From assembly GCA_025363275.1 (NCBI GenBank), contig JANYEE010000260.1, forward strand, positions 1 to 64,000: a DNA stretch of 64,000 nt. Direction: 5' to 3'. Shown piece after piece: positions 4,796 to 63,887 of this stretch. Both the position numbers and the translations under genes were made by a program. This DNA is from Burkholderiales bacterium. Its GTDB lineage: Bacteria; Pseudomonadota; Gammaproteobacteria; Burkholderiales; Burkholderiaceae_C. Below the pieces are notes generated by a model. That model worked only from the letters and a program-made list of their open reading frames with translations. It ran no database searches and had not been told where the DNA came from. The first letter of the stretch is position 1; each line of letters starts with the position of its first letter.

Positions 4796-4871
4796 CGAAT
4801 TTCCTGTGTCGACGGCAGGGGAGTGCAGCAATGCCAAATAAGCCCGTAAAGGCCTTGGCATTTTTATCACG

Positions 4872-4948
4872 CTTCCCTGCGCAAGTATTACCTTGATCAA
4901 GTTCCAGGGTGTTATCTCAGCCGGCCGTCTTGCGACAGCCAGCACCCC
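4872..4948 (-). promoter_or_regulatory. TPP riboswitch (THI element)
   Basis: Minus strand reads GGGGTGCTGG...GGCTGAGATAACACCCTGGAACTTGATCAAGGTAATACTTGCGCAGGGAAG, matching the conserved THI-box core (CUGAGA...ACCC...GAACCUGAUC...GUAGGGAA). Confidence 0.93.
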
Positions 4949-5054
4949 TAGCGTTTACGAGCCGGTATCAGCCGTCTCGAGCAGGAATTGTAGGGGCTAA
5001 CCCAAGGGTCGACAGATATGATGCTTTTTTAAGCCCATTCAACAGGTGCACACC

Positions 5055-5705
5055 ATGTACAACCCATCCCATTTTGCAGAGAGCCGGCCCGACGTCCTGG
5101 GCGCACTGATGGCTGCACACCCCCTGGCTACGCTGGTCACGCTGTCGCAGGGGCAACTGGTTGCGAATTACGTCCCGCTGCTGCTACGCCGCGATGAAAC
5201 ACCATTTGGAACACTGATTGGCCATGTGGCCCGCGCAAACCCTGTCTGGAGTGCTATAGATTTAGGAGTGGATGCCTTGGCGTGCTTTCAGGGGCCCCAG
5301 CGGTACATCAGTCCGTCGCTGTATGCCAGCAAGGCCGAGCACGGCAAGGTAGTGCCTACGTGGAACTATGTGGTGGTGCAGGCCAGCGGGCCTTTGACGG
5401 TGCATGACGATGCTGACTGGATTCACGCACAGGTGTCCGCGCTCACGCAGCATCTGGAGTCGGACCGCGAGAAGCCCTGGGCAGTAGACGATGCGCCGCG
5501 CGCGTATACCGACACCATGATCCGGGCGCTGGTGGGTATTTCAATCCCGGTGGTCACCATCGCCGGCAAATGGAAAGTGAGTCAGAACCAGCCCCCAGCG
5601 AATAGGGATAGTGTGGCTCAGCAGCTGGGGCAGTCTTCTTTGGATGCGGACCAGGTTATGGCAGATTTGGTTCGGGGCACAGCGGGTGGCGCACGAAAGT
5701 CGTAG
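5055..5705 (+). CDS. FMN-binding negative transcriptional regulator, PaiB family
   Basis: MYNPSHFAE..., FQGPQRYISPSLY, VPTWNYVVVQ motifs. Confidence 0.88.
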   Translation: MYNPSHFAESRPDVLGALMAAHPLATLVTLSQGQLVANYVPLLLRRDETPFGTLIGHVARANPVWSAIDLGVDALACFQGPQRYISPSLYASKAEHGKVVPTWNYVVVQASGPLTVHDDADWIHAQVSALTQHLESDREKPWAVDDAPRAYTDTMIRALVGISIPVVTIAGKWKVSQNQPPANRDSVAQQLGQSSLDADQVMADLVRGTAGGARKS

Positions 5706-9936: not shown

Positions 9937-11742
9937 TTAGTGCCTGTTAGTGCCGATCAACCATTCCTTGCGGAAAAGCCACAGATTAGGATACCAGAGG
10001 TTATCGAGGCTGATCTCACCCGATTTGTGGCGGCTCTTGACGTGCCATCTCCACCCCAGCAGTTCGCAGCCAGGAATACAACTGGGCGTCGCTTCAGCCG
10101 ACTCATCCTGGAGCCAGACCACCGCGTCAAACTCGCTCAGCAGAAAGTTAAGCCGCTCTTGGGGCGGCATCTCAGGATGAAACGCCCCCGTGTTGCGGCC
10201 CTCCGCGTCATAGGGCGTGATTCGCGCGCCGGGGAGCACCAAGTGAAAACGCTCGAACTGCCCCGTAAATCCGTTGGGCACTGCAATGCGCAGGTGTTGC
10301 ATGCGCAATTGAAGTTCAGGGCTGTAACTTGCTTCTGGCTGGCTCAGGGGCTGCACCATGGCGCTAAAGGTTCCGTAAACAGCCAAAACAGCTCCCAAAG
10401 CGGCCGCTTTTCCATTTTTAATGCCAAAACCGGCTATGGCCCAGGTAAAACCTGCCCCAGCAGCTATCAAAATGATAGTAACTTGGATGGGGCTCGCAAT
10501 GCCTAAGCTACCCATGACCCAGCCAATGCGCCCCAGAATGACAAGCGCCGGTAGACAAATGGCTAGCGTTATCCAAAACCAGGATTTGCCGATGCGGTCC
10601 CAGGTCCAAGCCAGGGCCATCGCCAAGGCCGGCATCGCCGGTATGACGTAGCGTGCGGACCGCTGGCTTGGCAATGTGAAAACAATCAACCAGACCACTA
10701 ACCAGACCAGAATGATTCTGTGGGTGTTGGGCATCGCGAGGTAGGTGCTGCGTTTGAATGCTGCAGGGGCGACGGCCCAAACAAGGCCCAGCACGATGAA
10801 GAAAAGCAATCCCGCATTCTCTGGATAGGCGAACAATTGGGTCCACATTGGGTAGGCGCCAAATAGGGCGGCGTGCCAATAGCCTTGGCCACCTGACATT
10901 TTGCCGGCGTTCTCCGCCACGATGAACTCTTGCCACACTGCGACGGGGTCGGGGTCCAGCACGAACCAAAGGGAGAAAATGCCCAGACCGATGACGGTGC
11001 TACAACCCACGCCGACTGTCGCACGCAGCGTGTGGGTCCAGCGCCATTGTGGTTCGCTGGCCAGAATGGCGACCCACAATGTAGCCGCCGCCGGGGCAAT
11101 TAGCGCAAATGATTTGTAGGCTGCACCCAGACCAAATGCCAGACCGATCAACGTGTAGTGGAGCCAGTTAAAGATGGCAGGCTGGGCGGTGGGAATAACG
11201 GGTGCGGAGATACGCTTCCATAGCAGCCACCACATGGGCAGTGCCAACCAGAAGGTTTCCGGTGCAGAGGTGAGGTAAACGCGGCCATACCGAAATGTTG
11301 AAAAAAACAGCAGGTAAAAAACGGTGGCCAGGCAGGCCTCCCGTAAGCGGCCACTGATCTTGAAGGTGAAGAACGCTAGCAAGCCGGTTGTGGCAAAGGT
11401 GTAAAAAATACTGGGCAGGCGCAAGATCCACAAACTCCAGGCCTGTCCCCATTGGCCTACGACCATGGCTTGCCAGAACAGCAAAGGGGGTTTGGTGTTG
11501 CGCGTATCAATGATCTCGGACTGGAGGGGCAGCCAGTGGCCGGACTCGGCGGTCATGCGGGCGATATGGATGTAGACCATCTCGTCGCCATTGGTGGGCG
11601 CGTAAAAGCTGTCAAGCCCGTAGAGGTAGAGCAGGGCAGACAGGACCACCAAGATGAGCCACCCAGCGGACTGGCGCAGTGAAGAAGCGGACGCCGTCAT
11701 GGATGGGGGCGGAGAAGCGCTCAGCGGCGCTTGAATGTCCAT
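9937..11742 (-). CDS. Glycosyltransferase family 39 / ArnT-like membrane protein; contains an in-frame copy of the dispersed repeat
   Basis: NGDEMVYIHIARMTAESGHWLPL motif, multiple TM segments. Confidence 0.85.
   Translation of the reverse strand: MDIQAPLSASPPPSMTASASSLRQSAGWLILVVLSALLYLYGLDSFYAPTNGDEMVYIHIARMTAESGHWLPLQSEIIDTRNTKPPLLFWQAMVVGQWGQAWSLWILRLPSIFYTFATTGLLAFFTFKISGRLREACLATVFYLLFFSTFRYGRVYLTSAPETFWLALPMWWLLWKRISAPVIPTAQPAIFNWLHYTLIGLAFGLGAAYKSFALIAPAAATLWVAILASEPQWRWTHTLRATVGVGCSTVIGLGIFSLWFVLDPDPVAVWQEFIVAENAGKMSGGQGYWHAALFGAYPMWTQLFAYPENAGLLFFIVLGLVWAVAPAAFKRSTYLAMPNTHRIILVWLVVWLIVFTLPSQRSARYVIPAMPALAMALAWTWDRIGKSWFWITLAICLPALVILGRIGWVMGSLGIASPIQVTIILIAAGAGFTWAIAGFGIKNGKAAALGAVLAVYGTFSAMVQPLSQPEASYSPELQLRMQHLRIAVPNGFTGQFERFHLVLPGARITPYDAEGRNTGAFHPEMPPQERLNFLLSEFDAVVWLQDESAEATPSCIPGCELLGWRWHVKSRHKSGEISLDNLWYPNLWLFRKEWLIGTNRH
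10424..10481 (-). repeat. Dispersed element A, copy 2 (inside the GT39 CDS)
   Basis: Minus strand TTACTATCATTTTGATAGCTGCTGGGGCAGGTTTTACCTGGGCCATAGCCGGTTTTGG; TTTACCTGGGCCATAG identical to copy 9. Confidence 0.8.
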
Positions 11743-37004: not shown

Positions 37005-37664
37005 GTGAGCTTCCTCAATCAACTCAAATTACAAGCCCATGCGTTGCAAACCCAAAAGGTGCACAACGCGGACGAGATCGTTGTCAATGCCCAGGCTACT
37101 GAGCTGGCCTGCAAGACCGTGTGGCATTACCTCAATGAGCTATGCAAGCACCTCAACGTGCTGGCCCCTGCCGCGCCCGAATTTGCGCTGGACAAGAACG
37201 CTGTTTGGCCTCCGATGAAGCTGGTGGACTTCCGGCTGGATGCGCGCAAAAAAATGCTGCGTGACCAGGAGGTGGTCGATACAATTTCTGTCGGCTGGCA
37301 CATCTTGCCTTTGCACGGAGAGCCCCGCTTGGCCACGGTCGACGTGGACTTTGTGCCAGAGCTGGAGCGGGTGATGAAAAACCTGTCGGTCGGTGGCGTG
37401 AAGTTTGAGCGCAAGGACGTGGTGCAGCCAGACAAAAAGCCCAAACGCCTTATCCGCTTTGAATGCATGACCCAGGCTCGCGGTTTTGTGACCATCACCG
37501 CGGACCACGACAACGCCCAGCTTAACTTCCGCCTAGCCAATACCTCAGGCTTTGGAGTCAAGAATGTGACCTGGCCCGCAGAGCGGATGCAATCCGAGTT
37601 CTTGGATGAATTGGCCAAACTCATCGTGGCCCAACCCAACCGCTTTGTTGTCGAACCCGCGTGA
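37005..37664 (+). CDS. Conserved hypothetical protein
   Basis: Open frame MSFLNQLKLQAHALQTQ..., overlapping the DUF1415 gene by 4 nt. Confidence 0.7.
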   Translation: MSFLNQLKLQAHALQTQKVHNADEIVVNAQATELACKTVWHYLNELCKHLNVLAPAAPEFALDKNAVWPPMKLVDFRLDARKKMLRDQEVVDTISVGWHILPLHGEPRLATVDVDFVPELERVMKNLSVGGVKFERKDVVQPDKKPKRLIRFECMTQARGFVTITADHDNAQLNFRLANTSGFGVKNVTWPAERMQSEFLDELAKLIVAQPNRFVVEPA

Positions 37665-38254
37665 TGGATGACGCTGCGGTTGTTACGTTCACGGTCCAAT
37701 GGCTGGAGCGGGCGGTCATCGGTTTGAACCTATGCCCCTTCGCCAAAGGCGTGCATGTCAAGGGCCAGATCCATTACGTGGTCACCACCGCCAGCACCCA
37801 TGCCGATCTGCTTGAATCTCTCAAAAATGAGCTCAATGGGCTGCAGGCCCAGGAATCTATTGCCCGGGACACTACACTTTTAATAGCGCCCGTGGCGTTC
37901 CCGGATTTTCTGGACTTTCATGATTTCCTGCCTGACTGCGATCGGCTGCTGCGCCGCATGAAGCTTAATGGCGTTTTTCAGATTGCCAGCTTCCATCCGC
38001 AGTTCCAGTTTGCCGATACGGCGCCTGAGGACATCGCCAATTACACCAACCGCGCTCCGTTTCCCATCCTGCACCTTCTGCGTGAAGAAAGCATTGACCG
38101 GGCTGTAGAGGCTTTTCCCGAGCCCGATGCTATTTTCGAGAAGAATATGCAAACGCTGCGAGACCTGGGTATCGACGGCTGGAACGCACTGGGCGTGCAA
38201 GCCCCAACGGGCGTGGGTGACATGCTCCCGCATGGCGAGAAGAAGGTTCTATGA
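37661..38254 (+). CDS. DUF1415 family protein; contains an in-frame copy of the dispersed repeat
   Basis: WLERAVIGLNLCPFAKGV ... IASFHPQFQFADTAPEDIANYTNRAPFPILHLLREESI. Confidence 0.88.
   Translation: MMDDAAVVTFTVQWLERAVIGLNLCPFAKGVHVKGQIHYVVTTASTHADLLESLKNELNGLQAQESIARDTTLLIAPVAFPDFLDFHDFLPDCDRLLRRMKLNGVFQIASFHPQFQFADTAPEDIANYTNRAPFPILHLLREESIDRAVEAFPEPDAIFEKNMQTLRDLGIDGWNALGVQAPTGVGDMLPHGEKKVL
37832..37889 (-). repeat. Dispersed element A, copy 4 (inside the DUF1415 CDS)
   Basis: Minus strand GCGCTATTAAAAGTGTAGTGTCCCGGGCAATAGATTCCTGGGCCTGCAGCCC; conserved blocks in exact register. Confidence 0.6.
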
Positions 38255-39757: not shown

Positions 39758-40638
39758 GTAATGGGGGTCGGTAATGGGGGTCGGATTCCAATTAAGATGT
39801 GACTTTATTATGTTTTGGCACGCCCATGGCCCGACAACCCCGCCTCTCCCTGGCCGGTTACCCACATCACATCATCCAGCGCGGCAACAACCGGCAGGTG
39901 ATTTTTATGGACGTGGCTGATCGCCAGTTTTTTTTGGATCTGCTGGAAGCGCATTCCAGGCAATTCGGTGTTGCCATCCATAGTTACGTGCTTATGGATA
40001 ACCATGTGCATTTGCTGGCAACGCCGGGCACGGCTGAGGCGCTGCCGGGCATGATGCAAGCGGTGGGGCGTCGTTACGTGCGTTACTTCAACGATCGCCA
40101 CGGCCGAACGGGCACGCTCTGGGACGGACGCTACAAATCCACGCTGGTGCAGTCCGAGTCCTATTTACTAACGTGTATGGCCTACCTGGATTTGAACCCG
40201 GTACGCGCTGGCCTGGTTGCACAGCCGTCCGATTACGCATGGTCCAGTCATGGCCATTACACCGGCCAGCGCACCGACAAGCTCATCACACCACATCCTT
40301 TGGCTTGGGAGCTAGGCAATACTCCGTTTGCCCGCGAGGCCGCCTACGCCAGCTTGGTGCAGGGTGGCTTGGTGCGCAGCGAGCAGACTGCCATTACCGA
40401 CTCGGCACTGTACGGCTGGGCTTTGGGTGATCCAGAGTTTGTCGCAAATCTGCAAAAGAAAACGCCACGCCGCTTGGTCAAGGGACAGGCAGGGCGACCC
40501 AAAAGTACCCTGAAAATTAGAGAATAGTATCCCTGGCCCTTGTATTTATTACCTTCGGTGCTATGTATTTTGATGTGTCCCTAAATAAAATTATTGATGA
40601 ATTGATCTTATGTAATAGGGATTTGACCCCAATTAAAG
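39758..40638 (+). mobile_element. RAYT locus with tandem 13-mer and imperfect inverted-repeat flanks
   Basis: GTAATGGGGGTCG x2 in tandem at 39758-39783; left TAATGGGGGTCGGATTCC versus inverse of right flank TTAATTGGGGTCAAATCCCT. Confidence 0.6.
39826..40527 (+). CDS. REP-associated tyrosine transposase (TnpA_REP / Y1 family)
   Basis: MARQPRLSLAGYPHHIIQRGNNRQ, VLMDNHVHLLATP, GTLWDGRYKSTLVQSESYLLTCMAYLDLNPVRAGLV. Confidence 0.93.
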   Translation: MARQPRLSLAGYPHHIIQRGNNRQVIFMDVADRQFFLDLLEAHSRQFGVAIHSYVLMDNHVHLLATPGTAEALPGMMQAVGRRYVRYFNDRHGRTGTLWDGRYKSTLVQSESYLLTCMAYLDLNPVRAGLVAQPSDYAWSSHGHYTGQRTDKLITPHPLAWELGNTPFAREAAYASLVQGGLVRSEQTAITDSALYGWALGDPEFVANLQKKTPRRLVKGQAGRPKSTLKIRE

Positions 40639-40701
40639 TAATTGGCAAGCTTGTTGCATTGCAGTATTCTCTCGTTCCAATGCAATTTTCAGGAGAGCGC
40701 C

Positions 40702-43700
40702 ATGACTACGGCAGCCGAAATCAAACACCTCGTCGACCACGGTTTGTATTCCAACTCCCATGAGCACGACGCCTGCGGCGTGGGCTTTGTGGCCCATATC
40801 CGAGGTGAGAAGAGCCACTCGATTGTCAAAAATGCGTTGAAGATCTTGGAGAACCTGGACCACCGGGGTGCAGTGGGTGCGGACAAGCTGATGGGCGATG
40901 GTGCCGGCATCCTGATCCAACTACCCGACGCGTTGTACCGCGAAGAAATGGCCCGGGCTGGAACGGCCCCTGACGGCTCCGTGGGCGTGACATTGCCGCC
41001 CCCCGGCGAATACGGCGTTGGCATGATCTTCTTGCCCAAAGAGCACGCGTCCCGCCTGGCCTGCGAGCAGGAGATGGAGCGTGCCATCAAGGCTGAAGGG
41101 CAGGTGCTGCTGGGCTGGCGCGATGTGCCGGTCAATCGCGACATGCCTATGTCGCCCACCGTGCGCGAAAAAGAACCCATTCAGCGCCAAGTGTTCATCG
41201 GCCGGGGTCAGGATGTGATCGTGCAGGACGCTCTGGAGCGTAAGCTCTACGTCATCCGCAAGACTGCCAGTGCGGCGATTCAGAACCTGCAACTCAAGCA
41301 CAGCAAGGAATACTACGTTCCCAGCATGTCCAGCCGCACCATGGTCTACAAGGGCCTGCTGTTAGCCAATCAAGTGGGCGTGTACTTCAAGGATCTGGAG
41401 GACGAGCGTTGTGTGTCAGCCTTGGGCCTGGTACACCAGCGCTTCTCGACCAACACTTTCCCCGAGTGGCCGCTGGCCCACCCCTACCGCTACGTGGCGC
41501 ACAACGGTGAGATCAACACCGTCAAAGGTAACTACAACTGGATGAAGGCGCGCGAAGGCGTGATGTCCTCGCCCGTTCTGGCGGCGGACTTGCAAAAGCT
41601 GTACCCCATTAGCTTCGCAGGCCAGTCCGACACCGCTACGTTTGACAACTGTCTGGAACTGCTGACCATGGCGGGCTACCCGCTGAGCCAGGCCGTGATG
41701 ATGATGATCCCCGAGCCTTGGGAGCAGCACACCACGATGGATTCGCGCCGCAAAGCTTTTTATGAATACCACGCCGCGATGATGGAACCCTGGGACGGCC
41801 CGGCCTCCATCGTGTTCACCGATGGTCGTCAGATCGGTGCCACGCTGGACCGCAATGGACTGCGCCCCTCCCGCTACTGCATCACCGATGACGACCTGGT
41901 CATCATGGGCTCGGAATCCGGCGTATTGCCCGTACCTGAGAACAGAATAGTGCGTAAATGGCGCTTGCAGCCGGGCAAGATGTTCCTGATTGATCTGGAA
42001 CAAGGCCGCATGATTGACGATGAGGAGCTTAAAGCCAACCTCGCCAACAGCAAGCCCTACAAGCAGTGGATCGAGAACCTGCGCATCAAACTCGATGATG
42101 TGACATTCTCCGACCGCCGTAAAGACGTGACGTTTGCTGCGGTGGTGGAAGGCGTAGAACCCAAGCGTATGACCGACAAAGTCAACCTGCTAGACCGCCA
42201 GCAGGCCTTTGGTTTCACACAAGAGGACTTGAAATTCCTGATCGCACCCATGGCGACCGCGGGCGAAGAAGCCATCGGCTCCATGGGCAACGACAGCCCG
42301 CTGGCTGTGCTCTCAGACAAAAACAAACCGCTGTACAACTACTTCAAGCAGTTGTTTGCCCAGGTGACCAATCCGCCGATCGACCCTATTCGCGAAGCCA
42401 TCGTGATGTCGCTGGTGTCGTTTATCGGCCCCAAGCCCAATTTGCTCGACATTAACCAAGTCAACCCGCCGATGCGCCTGGAGGTGAGCCAGCCGGTGCT
42501 GAACTTTGCAGACATGGCCAAGCTGCGTAACATTGAGCAGCACACCCAGGGTAAGTTCCGCAGTTACACGTTGGACATCACCTACCCATTCGATTGGGGA
42601 CACGAGGGGGTAGAAGCCAAGCTAGCATCGCTGTGTGCGGAAGCTGTAGACGCGATCAAGGGGGGTAAAAATATCCTGATCATCAGCGACCGCGGCTTGA
42701 ACGCAACGCAGGTAGCCATTCCGGCATTGCTGGCCTTGAGTGCCATTCACCAACATCTTGTGGCTGAGGGCTTACGCACCACTGCAGGCTTGGTGGTGGA
42801 AACCGGTACTGCCCGTGAAGTACACCATTTTGCAGTGCTGGCAGGTTATGGTGCTGAAGCCGTGCACCCCTATCTGGCGCTGGAAACGCTGGCCCATATT
42901 CACAAGGACTTGCCGGGTGATCTGAGCGCCGATAAGGCCATCTACAACTATGTGAAAGCCGTGGGCAAGGGCCTGTCCAAGATCATGTCCAAGATGGGCG
43001 TGAGCACCTACATGAGCTACTGCGGTGCCCAGTTGTTTGAGGCGATCGGCTTGTCCACCGAGACCGTCAACAAATACTTTACCGGCACGCCCAGCCGTGT
43101 CGAAGGCATCGGCGTTTTCGAGATTGCGGAGGAAGCTATTCGCATGCACAAGGGCGCTTTCAGCGCCGACCCGGTGCTGGCCAACGCGCTGGAAACTGGC
43201 GGTGAATACGCCTGGCGCGTGCGTGGCGAAGACCATATGTGGACGCCCGATGCAATCGCCAAGTTGCAGCACTCTACCCGTGCCAATAACTGGAACACCT
43301 ATAAGGAATACGCGCAGATCATTAACGATCAAAGCAAGCGTCATTTGACTTTACGCGGTCTGTTCGAGTTCAAAATTGACCCAGCCAAGGCCATACCTGT
43401 GGACGAAGTGGAGAGCGCCAAAGAGATCGTCAAACGCTTCGCCACCGGCGCCATGTCGCTGGGCTCCATCAGCACCGAAGCCCATGCTACGCTGGCTGTT
43501 GCCATGAACCGCATAGGCGGTAAAAGCAACACCGGTGAGGGCGGCGAGGACCCCGCACGTTATCGCCAAGAGCTCAAGGGCATCCCGATCAAGCAGGGTC
43601 AGACCATGGCCGACATCATTGGCCATGATGTGGTGGAAGTGGATATTCCATTGCTGCCGACCGACTCACTACGCTCCAAAATCAAGCAGGTCGCGTCCGG

Positions 43701-45516
43701 CCGTTTTGGTGTTACTGCTGAGTACCTGTCCAGCGCCGATCAGATCCAGATCAAAATGGCCCAGGGCGCCAAGCCGGGTGAGGGTGGTCAGCTCCCCGGT
43801 GGCAAGGTGTCCGAGTACATCGGTCGTTTGCGCCACTCTGTGCAGGGCGTTGGCCTGATTTCGCCTCCGCCACACCACGACATTTATTCGATCGAAGATT
43901 TGGCGCAGCTGATTCACGATCTGAAGAACGTCGCACCGCACTCCGGTATCAGCGTCAAGCTGGTAGCCGAAATTGGTGTGGGCACAATTGCTGCCGGCGT
44001 TGCCAAGTGCAAGGCCGATCATGTGGTGATTGCCGGCCACGATGGTGGTACGGGCGCTTCACCCTGGTCGTCTATCAAGCATTGCGGCAGCCCGTGGGAA
44101 ATCGGCTTGGCAGAAACACAGCAGACCCTGGTGCTGAACCGTCTACGCAGCCGCATCCGTGTGCAGGCAGATGGTCAGATGAAAACTGGCCGCGACGTTG
44201 CGATTGGTGCTCTGCTGGGCGCCGATGAATTCGGCTTCGCTACCGCACCGCTGGTGGTGGAGGGCTGCATCATGATGCGCAAGTGCCATCTGAACACCTG
44301 TCCGGTGGGTGTGGCTACGCAAGACCCACAGCTGCGCAAAAAATTCTCTGGCAAGCCGGAGCATGTCGTAAATTACTTCTTCTTCATCGCCGAAGAGGTA
44401 CGCCAAATCATGGCCCAACTCGGTATCCGTAAGTTCGACGATCTGATTGGCCGCTCTGATTTACTGGACACCCGCAAGGGCATTGAGCATTGGAAGGCAC
44501 AGGGACTGGATTTCGGTCGTCTGTTTGCCCAGCCCCAAGTGCCAGCCGATGTGCCACGTTTTCAGACGCTGGAGCAGGACCACGGCCTGGAAAAAGCGCT
44601 GGACAATGTGTTGATCGCCAAGAGCCGCGCGGCTATCGACAAGGGCGAAAAAGTCCAGTTTATGGAAGCTGCCCGCAACGTCAATCGGTCCGTAGGAGCC
44701 ATGCTCTCTGGCGCGGTTACCAAAGTGCACCCTGAGGGCTTGCCGGACAATACCATCCACATTCAGTTGGAGGGTACCGGTGGGCAATCGTTTGGCGCCT
44801 TCTTGTGCAAGGGAATCACGTTGTATTTGATTGGCGATGCCAACGACTACACCGGCAAAGGTTTGTCGGGCGGCCGTGTGGTGGTGCGCCCGAGCATTGA
44901 TTTCCGCGGAGCAGCGATCAACAACACCATCGTCGGCAACACCGTGATGTACGGTGCCACTGCGGGGGAGGCCTTTTTCAGCGGCGTGGGTGGTGAGCGC
45001 TTTGCAGTACGTTTATCGGGCGCCACTGCAGTGATCGAGGGTACTGGTGACCACGGTTGCGAATACATGACGGGCGGTACGGTCGCTGTGTTGGGTAAAA
45101 CGGGTCGTAACTTCGCAGCCGGTATGAGTGGCGGCATTGCCTATGTCTATGACGAAGACGGCCAGTTCGCCACGCGCTGCAACACCGCCATGGTCTCGAT
45201 GGAAAAAGTACTGACTACCCAGGAGCAGGAAGCACAAATCGACAAGGCCTTGTGGCACCGGGGTCAAAGCGACGAAGCCCAACTGCGCAAGTTGCTGGAA
45301 GAGCACAACCGCTGGACTGGCAGCAAGCGTGCCCGTGACCTGCTGGACCATTGGGATACCGCCCGCGCCAAATTCGTCAAGGTCTTCCCACTAGAGTACA
45401 AACGTGCTTTGGGTGAGATTCATGCACGTAAAGTGGCTGTGGCCCAGGTAGAACCTGTCCGGGTAGCTCCTAAAAAGATAGCGTCCGAGAAAAAAGACGG
45501 CGTACCCGCCAAGTAG
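40702..45516 (+). CDS. gltB: Glutamate synthase large subunit; C-terminal tail carries a repeat copy
   Basis: [16 protein letters not shown]; full-length GltB; ATG 40702 preceded by AGGAGAG. Confidence 0.97.
45427..45484 (-). repeat. Dispersed element A, copy 5 (inside the gltB 3' end)
   Basis: Minus strand ACGCTATCTTTTTAGGAGCTACCCGGACAGGTTCTACCTGGGCCACAGCC; 19-nt identity to copy 3 (TTCTACCTGGGCCACAGCC). Confidence 0.8.
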
Positions 45517-54326: not shown

Positions 54327-54986
54327 ATGAATGTTGAGACCATGATCACGCTCGCACTCTCCAAAGGCCGCATTTTTGAAGAAACCCTGCCGCTGTTGAA
54401 AGCGGCGGGCATTGAGGTGTTGGACGACCCGGAAAAGTCCCGCAAGCTGATTCTGGACACCAACTTGCCCGGCGTGCGAGTGCTGGTGGTGCGCGCGACC
54501 GATGTACCGACCTACGTGCAATACGGGGGTGCTGATCTGGGCATTACGGGCAAAGACACGCTGCTGGAGCACGGTAGCCAGGGCCTATACCAGCCGCTGG
54601 ATTTGCAAATCGCCAAGTGCCGCATCAGTGTGGCCGCGCGTGCAGACTTTGACTACGCTTCGGCTGTGAAGCAGGGCTCGCGCCTGAAGGTGGCCACCAA
54701 GTATGTGGCCATTGCCCGCGACTTCTTCGCCTCCAAAGGCGTGCACGTGGATCTGATCAAACTCTACGGCAGTATGGAACTGGCACCGTTGGTCGGCATG
54801 GCGGACGCCATCGTTGATCTGGTGTCTACCGGCAACACGCTCAAGGCTAACAATCTGATTGAGGTGGAGCAGATTATGGAAATCAGCTCGCGCCTGGTGG
54901 TGAACCAGGCCGCGCTCAAACTCAAACGCGAACCCTTACGCCGAATCATTGATGCTTTTGCGCAGGCTACTGCCGCGCAGACTTAA
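54327..54986 (+). CDS. hisG: ATP phosphoribosyltransferase (short form)
   Basis: [25 protein letters not shown]; start moved downstream of the repeat. Confidence 0.95.
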
Positions 54987-54994
54987 AGTTTTAA

Positions 54995-55052
54995 TTGCTA
55001 TGAAATTAGTAGCTGCTCCCGCACATCTATCAACGGCTAGCAGCCAATTTGA
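54995..55052 (+). repeat. Dispersed element A, copy 6 (overlaps the hisD start)
   Basis: TTGCTATGAAATTAGTAGCTGCTCCCGCACATCTATCAACGGCTAGCAGCCAATTTGA. Confidence 0.7.
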
Positions 55053-56316
55053 GGCTGAATTCAAAGCCCGCCTGCATTGGGCTGCCGACACCGATGCGTC
55101 CATTGAGACCAGCGTGGCGGCTATTTTGCAAGACGTGCAAGGGCGCGGCGATACAGCGGTGCTGGAGTACACCGCCCGCTGGGACCATGTGCAGGCCGCC
55201 ACGGTGGCCGAGCTGGAGCTGACCCAGGCCGAACTCAAAGCCGCGTTTGACAGCATTCCCGCACAGCAGCGCATCGCCCTGGAAGCCGCGGCCAAACGTG
55301 TGCGCACCTACCACGAAGCGCAGAAAAAAGCCTCGGGCGAGAGCTGGAGTTACCGCGATGAAGACGGCACATTGCTGGGCCAGAAGGTTACGCCGCTAGA
55401 CCGCGTCGGCATTTATGTGCCTGGTGGCAAGGCCGCCTATCCGTCGTCGGTGTTGATGAACGCCATACCCGCCCATGTGGCCGGCGTGGGTGAAATCATC
55501 ATGGTCGTGCCAACTCCCAGGGGTGAAAAGAACGCCCTGGTGTTGGCTGCCGCTTATGTGGCTGGCGTCACCCGCGCCTTCACCATTGGTGGTGCGCAGG
55601 CGGTGGCCGCGTTGGCCTATGGCACAGAGAGCATCCCTGCCGTGCACAAGATCACTGGCCCCGGCAATGCCTATGTGGCTGCTGCCAAGCGCCGCGTGTT
55701 CGGCACCGTGGGCATCGACATGATTGCCGGCCCAAGTGAGATTTTGGTGTTGGCCGACGGCACTACGCCGCCCGACTGGGTGGCCATGGACTTGTTCAGC
55801 CAAGCGGAACACGACGAACTGGCGCAGAGCATTCTGCTGTGCCCCGACGCCGCCTATATCGCCCAAGTGCAAGAGAGTATCAACCGCCTGCTGCCCGACA
55901 TGCCCCGCGCCGAGATCATTGCCAAAAGCCTGACCGACCGTGGCGCACTGATATTGACCCGCAGTATGCAAGAGGCCTGTGAGATCAGTAACCGCATTGC
56001 GCCGGAGCATTTGGAGGTGTCCAGTCAAGATCCGCATAAGTGGGAGCCCCTGCTCAAACACGCGGGCGCCATCTTCTTGGGTGCGTTCACCAGCGAATCT
56101 TTAGGCGACTACTGCGCTGGCCCCAACCACGTGCTGCCCACCAGCGGCACGGCCCGCTTTAGCAGCCCGCTGGGTGTGTATGACTTCCAAAAGCGCAGTA
56201 GCCTGATTGAGGTGAGCGAGCAGGGCGCGCAGACGCTGGGCCAGATTGCCAGCGTGTTGGCCCATGGCGAAGGCCTGCAGGCCCACGCCAGAGCGGCCGA
56301 GATGCGACTCAAGTAA
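55000..56316 (+). CDS. hisD: Histidinol dehydrogenase; start codon lies inside a dispersed repeat copy
   Basis: [25 protein letters not shown]; likely start ATG 55000 ([15 protein letters not shown]). Confidence 0.95.
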
Positions 56317-63829: not shown

Positions 63830-63887
63830 CCTTTTGGGCCTATGGCCCAGGTAAACGCTGCCTTGGCAGCTATTAAATATATAGCAA
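63830..63887 (-). repeat. Dispersed element A, copy 9 (hisF-hisI intergenic)
   Basis: Minus strand TTGCTATATATTTAATAGCTGCCAAGGCAGCGTTTACCTGGGCCATAGGCCCAAAAGG. Confidence 0.85.

What the first reader, a model, noticed from the sequence alone, without database searches (positions are those of the whole stretch)
10424..10481. Element A copy embedded in frame in a membrane glycosyltransferase
The minus-strand element is read as GTT ACT ATC ATT TTG ATA GCT GCT GGG GCA GGT TTT ACC TGG GCC ATA GCC GGT TTT GGC, encoding VTIILIAAGAGFTWAIAGFG, a plausible transmembrane segment. It shares 16 identical nt with the intergenic copy at 63830. This is the clearest case of a repeat contributing protein sequence, analogous to Rickettsia palindromic elements (RPEs).
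Basis: partly seen in the sequence, partly recalled or inferred. Interest (0 to 1): 0.82.

Follow-up and report, generated by a model that had tools for sequence, protein, structure and literature searches.

The report
Repeat element rewriting a membrane-protein helix
A short DNA repeat present in well over a hundred copies in this freshwater Rhodoferax genome also forms part of several protein-coding genes, including one membrane helix here, and in each related species the copy inside the gene tends to carry that species' own version of the repeat, so the repeat family appears to keep rewriting the proteins it sits in.

Summary
Window 10420-10487 is a true copy of a ~52-68-nt dispersed repeat (49.5 bits, E 3e-14, with a profile that excludes it). 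It encodes residues 421-440, predicted as a transmembrane helix, of an ArnT-like GT-C glycosyltransferase of a Rhodoferax.

It is not an insertion. But about 27 related orthologues carry repeat DNA at the same codons, where the others have normal GC-rich codons. In those genes the segment has the lowest synonymous divergence of 552 windows.

Repeats differ between genomes as 'dialects'. GT copies tend to match their own genome's dialect. So do copies in gltB, an IcmF-like and an EarP-like gene (pooled: observed 283, best of 100,000 permutations 187). Sister genomes G000 and G009 hold different dialects at the same codons of gltB and IcmF. Seventeen genomes have the family; 19 relatives lack it, and their genes show no recognisable element there.

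Best reading: recurrent in-place rewriting by gene conversion or homing; a RAYT transposase beside gltB is a candidate agent, not shown. Rival: selection for a motif read by a co-evolving factor.

The parts
10420..10487 (-). Dispersed-repeat copy inside the glycosyltransferase gene (gene-sense orientation; 52-nt core 10428-10479), encoding VTIILIAAGAGFTWAIAGFG
   Evidence: Model R1, built without GT copies: 46.6 bits, E=1.1e-15; profile HMM 49.5 bits; codon alignments
9937..11742 (-). ArnT-like GT-C glycosyltransferase, 601 aa; element = residues 421-440 = predicted TM helix 418-440
   Evidence: ORF; weak Pfam PMT E=0.0035 below the curated cut-off; AlphaFold pLDDT 85; best PDB fold match ArnT 5ezm, E=4.6e-8
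45423..45490 (-). Repeat copy inside the C-terminal tail of gltB, read in the antisense frame ([19 protein letters not shown])
   Evidence: R1 38.9 bits; orthologous copies in L232-L235 and L244-L247; own-dialect match
40642..45516 (+). gltB, glutamate synthase large subunit (identified from its sequence; ORF start uncertain)
   Evidence: ORF list
39799..40527 (+). REP-associated tyrosine transposase (RAYT/Y1_Tnp) gene, 242 aa; candidate but unproven driver
   Evidence: Pfam Y1_Tnp 42.2 bits, above cut-off; NCBIfam NF047646 73.3 bits, below its cut-off of 80
40525..40580 (-). Degenerate element copy directly 3' of the RAYT stop; counterparts at the same place in family-bearing relatives
   Evidence: Inverted-repeat pair I3, sequence, relatives; below the profile threshold in this genome
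1259..1326 (-). Family copy
   Evidence: R1 58.2 bits
35712..35779 (+). Family copy; orthologous to G009:C85 40012, which is in G009's dialect
   Evidence: R1 72.5 bits; synteny
54989..55056 (+). Family copy near the 5' end of a 470-codon open frame; orthologous to G009:C85 59403; keeps a G009-like dialect
   Evidence: R1 52.3 bits
56791..56858 (+). Family copy
   Evidence: R1 47.7 bits
60824..60891 (-). Family copy
   Evidence: R1 67.0 bits
63826..63893 (-).
   Evidence: R1 68.0 bits

Best explanation
The segment is a coding copy of a REP-like dispersed repeat. Shown: the family occurs at high density in one part of Rhodoferax; its copies lie between genes and, in frame, inside genes; a coding copy sits at the same codons in many species; the genes of family-bearing genomes keep the repeat at nucleotide level; and the copies tend to be in the dialect of their own genome. 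Inferred: copies exchange sequence within a genome, by gene conversion or by homing of the element into an occupied site, so new dialects overwrite old copies in place. Because the element has a fixed length and two stop-free frames, overwriting keeps the reading frame and changes the protein (here the GCG GGG GCT-type codons of relatives against ACC TGG GCC, giving Thr-Trp). A further inference, less sure: a RAYT (Y1/HUH) transposase such as the one beside gltB supplies the single-strand DNA intermediates.
For: Family membership. Same-codon copies in 28 of 81 GT genes, bimodal scores +24..+55 versus -9..-59. GC3 0.24-0.53 in the segment versus 0.67-0.82 in the gene. pS 0.345, lowest of 552 windows, against 241st in element-free genes. 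Genome dialect match: GT P=1e-5, gltB 1.2e-4, IcmF 4e-4, EarP 2e-3; pooled 282.6 versus permutation maximum 187.2. Sister genomes: gltB and IcmF in G009 +21.9 and +18.6 bits for own dialect against -12.2 and -9.5 for the best other; G000 +9.4 and +9.4 against +0.4 and -0.1. Matching runs are blocks of about 20 nt that change amino acids. Orthologous intergenic copies in different dialects. Family and coding copies go together. Element copies beside RAYT genes.
Against: No conversion event was seen between close strains; the permutation tests treat genomes as exchangeable. Own-genome rank is not first in every case (gltB of G003 and G022, IcmF of G022, G007 and G012). RAYT is present and looks intact in genomes without the family. 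Homology of ~50 nt at ~75% identity is short for RecA-type conversion (general knowledge). The genic/intergenic split rests on ORF statistics, not annotation.
Confidence: 0.55

Rival explanations
1. Selection in trans: every copy, coding ones included, is a site read by a genome-encoded DNA- or RNA-binding factor. The factor's specificity drifts and all copies follow by point mutation and selection, as with DNA uptake sequences.
For: Nucleotide-level constraint on the segment; dialects with a universal left half and a variable right half; dialects of uptake sequences in coding DNA are known (PMC3630211).
Against: About a dozen positions would have to change at many loci; changes look block-like and amino-acid-changing; an element this long and divergent is unlike a 9-12-nt uptake signal. 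No factor was identified.
Confidence: 0.3
2. One old RPE-like insertion or replacement in an ancestor, inherited vertically and decaying neutrally in some lineages, with no exchange among copies.
For: Shared position across a clade; decayed copy in sister G009; remnants such as 17 hits in G023.
Against: Does not explain low synonymous divergence or genome-specific dialects at orthologous codons.
Confidence: 0.1
3. Chance: a hydrophobic coding stretch that happens to resemble the repeat.
For: Protein is colinear with repeat-free orthologues; a 16-nt match alone is near expectation.
Against: E=3e-14 with an independent profile; codon usage shift confined to the segment; the same pattern in three other genes.
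Confidence: 0.02
4. Import of whole gene segments from relatives by ordinary homologous recombination carries foreign dialects in.
For: Rhodoferax gene trees have weak nodes; L079 and L087 sit in or beside the element clade without the element.
Against: Imports would mismatch the recipient's dialect; the opposite is seen. The two sister gltB genes share the left half and differ in the right half only.
Confidence: 0.03

Closest known systems
REP elements / REPINs with RAYT transposases (PMC3116915, PMC3686654, PMC8049555)
   Same: High-copy short palindromic repeats, mostly outside genes; species-specific classes; copies beside RAYT genes; loss or switch of classes between relatives ('orthoswitch').
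   Different: No invariant GTAG/CGTC tetranucleotide and no inverted doublets seen; dialect changes at the same occupied sites, including codons, whereas the orthoswitch model has new variants spreading while old copies stay and decay.
Rickettsia palindromic elements (RPE)
   Same: Dispersed palindromic repeats found both between genes and in frame within genes, contributing peptide sequence.
   Different: Here GT and IcmF show no extra segment relative to orthologues; dialect tracking. Sequence relation to RPE was not tested.
Intragenic GTAG/CGTC REPs (PMC3733652)
   Same: REPs inside ORFs encoding amino acids in many unrelated proteins.
   Different: That work did not report in-place dialect change at orthologous codons (passages read); Rhodoferax is not mentioned in its main text.
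Spaced motifs in Comamonadaceae (PMC5217627)
   Same: Polaromonas naphthalenivorans ATAGCT(N)22CAAAAG: 125 copies, 101 intergenic, 18 in genes; R. ferrireducens T118 has the most motif pairs of all genomes scanned. Probably kin of this family (resemblance only).
   Different: Reported as a motif of unknown role; no coding or dialect analysis.
DNA uptake sequence dialects in Neisseriaceae (PMC3630211)
   Same: Genome-specific dialects, some copies in coding DNA.
   Different: DUS are about 9-12 nt and tied to competence; this element is a ~52-nt structured block.

Membership tests
REP/RAYT system | Short palindromic repeat in high copy number, mostly outside genes | tested here: met
   At least 146-150 matches per genome, capped; 138 of 198 sampled copies outside coding-like ORFs
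REP/RAYT system | Conserved GTAG or CGTC tetranucleotide at one end of the palindrome | tested here: not met
   Consensus of 11 genomes shows no invariant GTAG/CGTC on either strand
REP/RAYT system | RAYT gene flanked by the repeat | tested here: inconclusive
   Copies 3' of the gltB-linked RAYT and beside RAYTs on G000:C6 and G015:C65, but the same RAYT occurs in family-free genomes
REP/RAYT system | Inverted doublets (REPINs) | tested here: not met
   Copies in the window are single and at least 1.8 kb apart; not examined genome-wide
Rickettsia palindromic elements | Same repeat both between genes and in frame within genes | tested here: met
Rickettsia palindromic elements | Extra in-frame segment absent from orthologues | tested here: not met
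   GT and IcmF colinear; gltB and EarP tails are longer than in other families, so mixed
Rickettsia palindromic elements | Sequence homology to RPE families | not tested
   No RPE sequences were compared; no Rfam hit to the element at gathering threshold
DNA uptake sequences | 9-12-nt motif recognised by the competence machinery | tested here: not met
   Conserved block is ~52 nt; competence was not tested
ArnT-like GT-C glycosyltransferases (the host protein) | GT-C fold | tested here: met
   Foldseek best hits 5ezm/5f15 ArnT, E=4.6e-8, TM 0.51/0.55; Pfam PMT only weak

The most novel reading that the evidence does not exclude
A dispersed repeat family acts as a molecular drive on proteins: an active copying system repeatedly replaces resident copies, including those in conserved genes, with the current genome dialect, so stretches of unrelated proteins co-evolve with non-coding repeats, and the stretches decay to ordinary codons once the family is lost.
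Probability: 0.45. Interest if true: 0.85.

Novelty: new variant of a known kind. Interest (0 to 1): 0.68.

Why it matters
How REP-like repeats spread and change class is unresolved. Orthologous coding copies in known reading frames give fixed, datable sites at which replacement, decay and selection can be told apart. If in-place rewriting holds, part of the amino-acid sequence of several conserved proteins (a GT-C transmembrane helix, the GltB tail, a linker in an IcmF-like protein, a loop in an EarP-like protein) is set by a repeat family rather than by the protein's own selection, which matters for reading conservation, dN/dS and protein evolution in these bacteria.

Tried and rejected
Simple insertion (19-20 extra residues): rejected, orthologues are colinear. 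Chance similarity: rejected. Structured RNA with covarying stem: a second hairpin (19-25/35-41) pairs 69% of the time, above slid versions (at most 60%), but no more than its column make-up predicts, and it adds no covariation beyond the dialects; not claimed. RAYT presence as sufficient cause: rejected, it is present in family-free genomes. Frame preference of genic copies (48 of 60 in two frames) is not counted as evidence of selection, because the other frames contain stops. Uptake-sequence reading kept only as an analogy. In one search the automatic ORF choice took the wrong ORF for G001, G007, G026 and G018, and those rows were ignored. An earlier dialect test on 8 genomes was superseded.

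Full report
WHAT IS THERE. The minus-strand reading in the finding is exact. The window belongs to a 3.7-Mb Rhodoferax-type genome (same-genus hits are named Rhodoferax or Comamonadaceae). The element is a dispersed repeat: GCTAT N7 ATAGCT followed by about 34 nt. The GCTATN7ATAG core occurs 11 times in the window against 0.19 expected. A profile from other copies, with this one left out, finds it at 49.5 bits, E=3.4e-14, and a covariance model at 46.6 bits. Sampled genomes hold about 100-160 copies per Mb in most stretches, fewer in some.

NOT AN INSERTION. Orthologues from 37 same-genus genomes and 80 named loci are colinear across residues 421-440; the only nearby length change is four codons downstream in L064. 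In 28 of 81 sequences, however, the DNA at those codons scores +24 to +55 bits for the repeat; in 52 it scores -9 to -59; L061, the nearest relative of the query, has a decayed +10. On a gene tree built without the segment, the element-bearing genes fall mostly into one clade (99% SH-aLRT), with element-free rows inside it (L079, L090, L084/L091/L093/L100). Some nodes are weak, so single gain with losses is favoured but not proven.

MAINTAINED AS DNA. In element-bearing genes GC3 falls from 0.67-0.82 to 0.24-0.53 in the segment. Synonymous divergence there is the lowest of 552 windows (pS 0.345, mean 0.563), while non-synonymous divergence is slightly above average; in element-free genes the segment ranks 241st. 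Protein constraint alone would not do this. Recent replacement or selection on the DNA would.

DIALECTS. Right halves differ by genome: G000 CTCAGGCAGNTTTTACCTGGGCC, G009 CTCCCGCACTATCCACGGGC, G007 CTCGCGCATATTCCACGGGCGCT, G015 CTTGCGCACT..ACGGGGGCT. The GT copy of G000 has GGGGCAGGTTTTACCTGGGCC, where its orthologues have TGCGCAGGTTTGGCGGGGGCT. The same test was made at three further coding loci: gltB, an IcmF-like gene and an EarP-like gene (the last two named from sequence, not by a family search). With coding copies removed from the profiles, own-genome matching gives P=1e-5, 1.2e-4, 4e-4 and 2e-3; the pooled statistic is 282.6 against a maximum of 187.2 in 100,000 permutations. The permutation ignores phylogeny, and own rank is not always first. 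Because the coding copies are orthologous, though, a clade-wide dialect still means that coding and dispersed copies changed together. The sister genomes show it most plainly: gltB in G009 favours its own dialect by 34 bits over any other and IcmF by 28, from only 7 sampled copies; in G000 both favour their own by about 9 bits. The gltB copies of the two share the left half GCTATCTTTTTAGGAGCT and differ to its right. Intergenic copies at orthologous places also differ in dialect (window 35720 and G009:C85 40012), and one, 54997, keeps the other dialect.

PRESENCE AND LOSS. Seventeen same-genus genomes have at least 138 model hits (capped), 19 have 0-2, and one has 17. Where both could be examined, the GT element is present only with the family; G009 has the family but a decayed GT copy. 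In named loci, 27 with the GT element hold 46 other copies in 470 kb, and 53 without hold 10 in 808 kb.

GENIC COPIES. Of 198 sampled copies, 60 lie in coding-like ORFs, 48 of them in the two stop-free frames. The frame skew is expected from the stops, so it shows tolerance, not selection.

AGENT. A RAYT-like gene lies at 39799-40527, next to gltB. Family-bearing relatives have an element copy just after its stop, and second RAYTs in G000 and G015 are also flanked. The gltB-linked RAYT is also present in family-free genomes, so it is at most part of the cause. RAYT activity on REPs is established elsewhere (literature cited in PMC8049555 and PMC3686654).

PROTEIN. The host is an ArnT-like GT-C enzyme. 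The segment is predicted helix 418-440, at high confidence, a tolerant place for hydrophobic replacement; function of the helix was not tested.

COMPARISON. REP 'orthoswitch' (PMC3686654) has new classes spreading while old copies remain and decay. Here occupied sites themselves appear to change. REPs inside genes are known (PMC3733652). I found no report, in the open papers searched, of genome-dialect tracking at orthologous codons for REP-like repeats. Dialects in coding DNA are known for uptake sequences (PMC3630211).

VERDICT. Real feature; insertion reading wrong; contribution to protein confirmed; concerted, dialect-level change well supported; mechanism open between conversion or homing and selection in trans.

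Noticed in passing
window 4857-4959 (-): TPP riboswitch, Rfam RF00059, 63.7 bits.
   Followed up: no
window 39799-40620: The RAYT gene is followed by TGATGTGTCCC...TCTGACCCC-type sequence also seen after its homologues in family-free genomes, possibly the long terminal repeats described for some RAYTs.
   Followed up: partly
L332-L340 versus window 39799-40524: RAYT proteins are only 50-73% identical between genomes whose GltB is about 88-97% identical, suggesting fast RAYT change alongside the dialects.
   Followed up: partly
G023 (17 hits), L087, L112, L116, L122, L136, L139: A few copies in genomes or loci whose GT gene lacks the element: remnants or sparse families.
   Followed up: no
L182:10918-14211, L276:10323-13457, L268:12433-14004, L209:15283-16401: Other long proteins with in-frame copies that were not compared with orthologues.
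   Followed up: no
window 54904-56313: 470-codon open frame with an element copy about 32 codons from its start; the true start codon may lie after the element.
   Followed up: no
window 5213-5273 and 37828-37895: Weak, decayed-looking family copies (28-30 bits); the second lies inside the 197-aa ORF 37661-38254.
   Followed up: no
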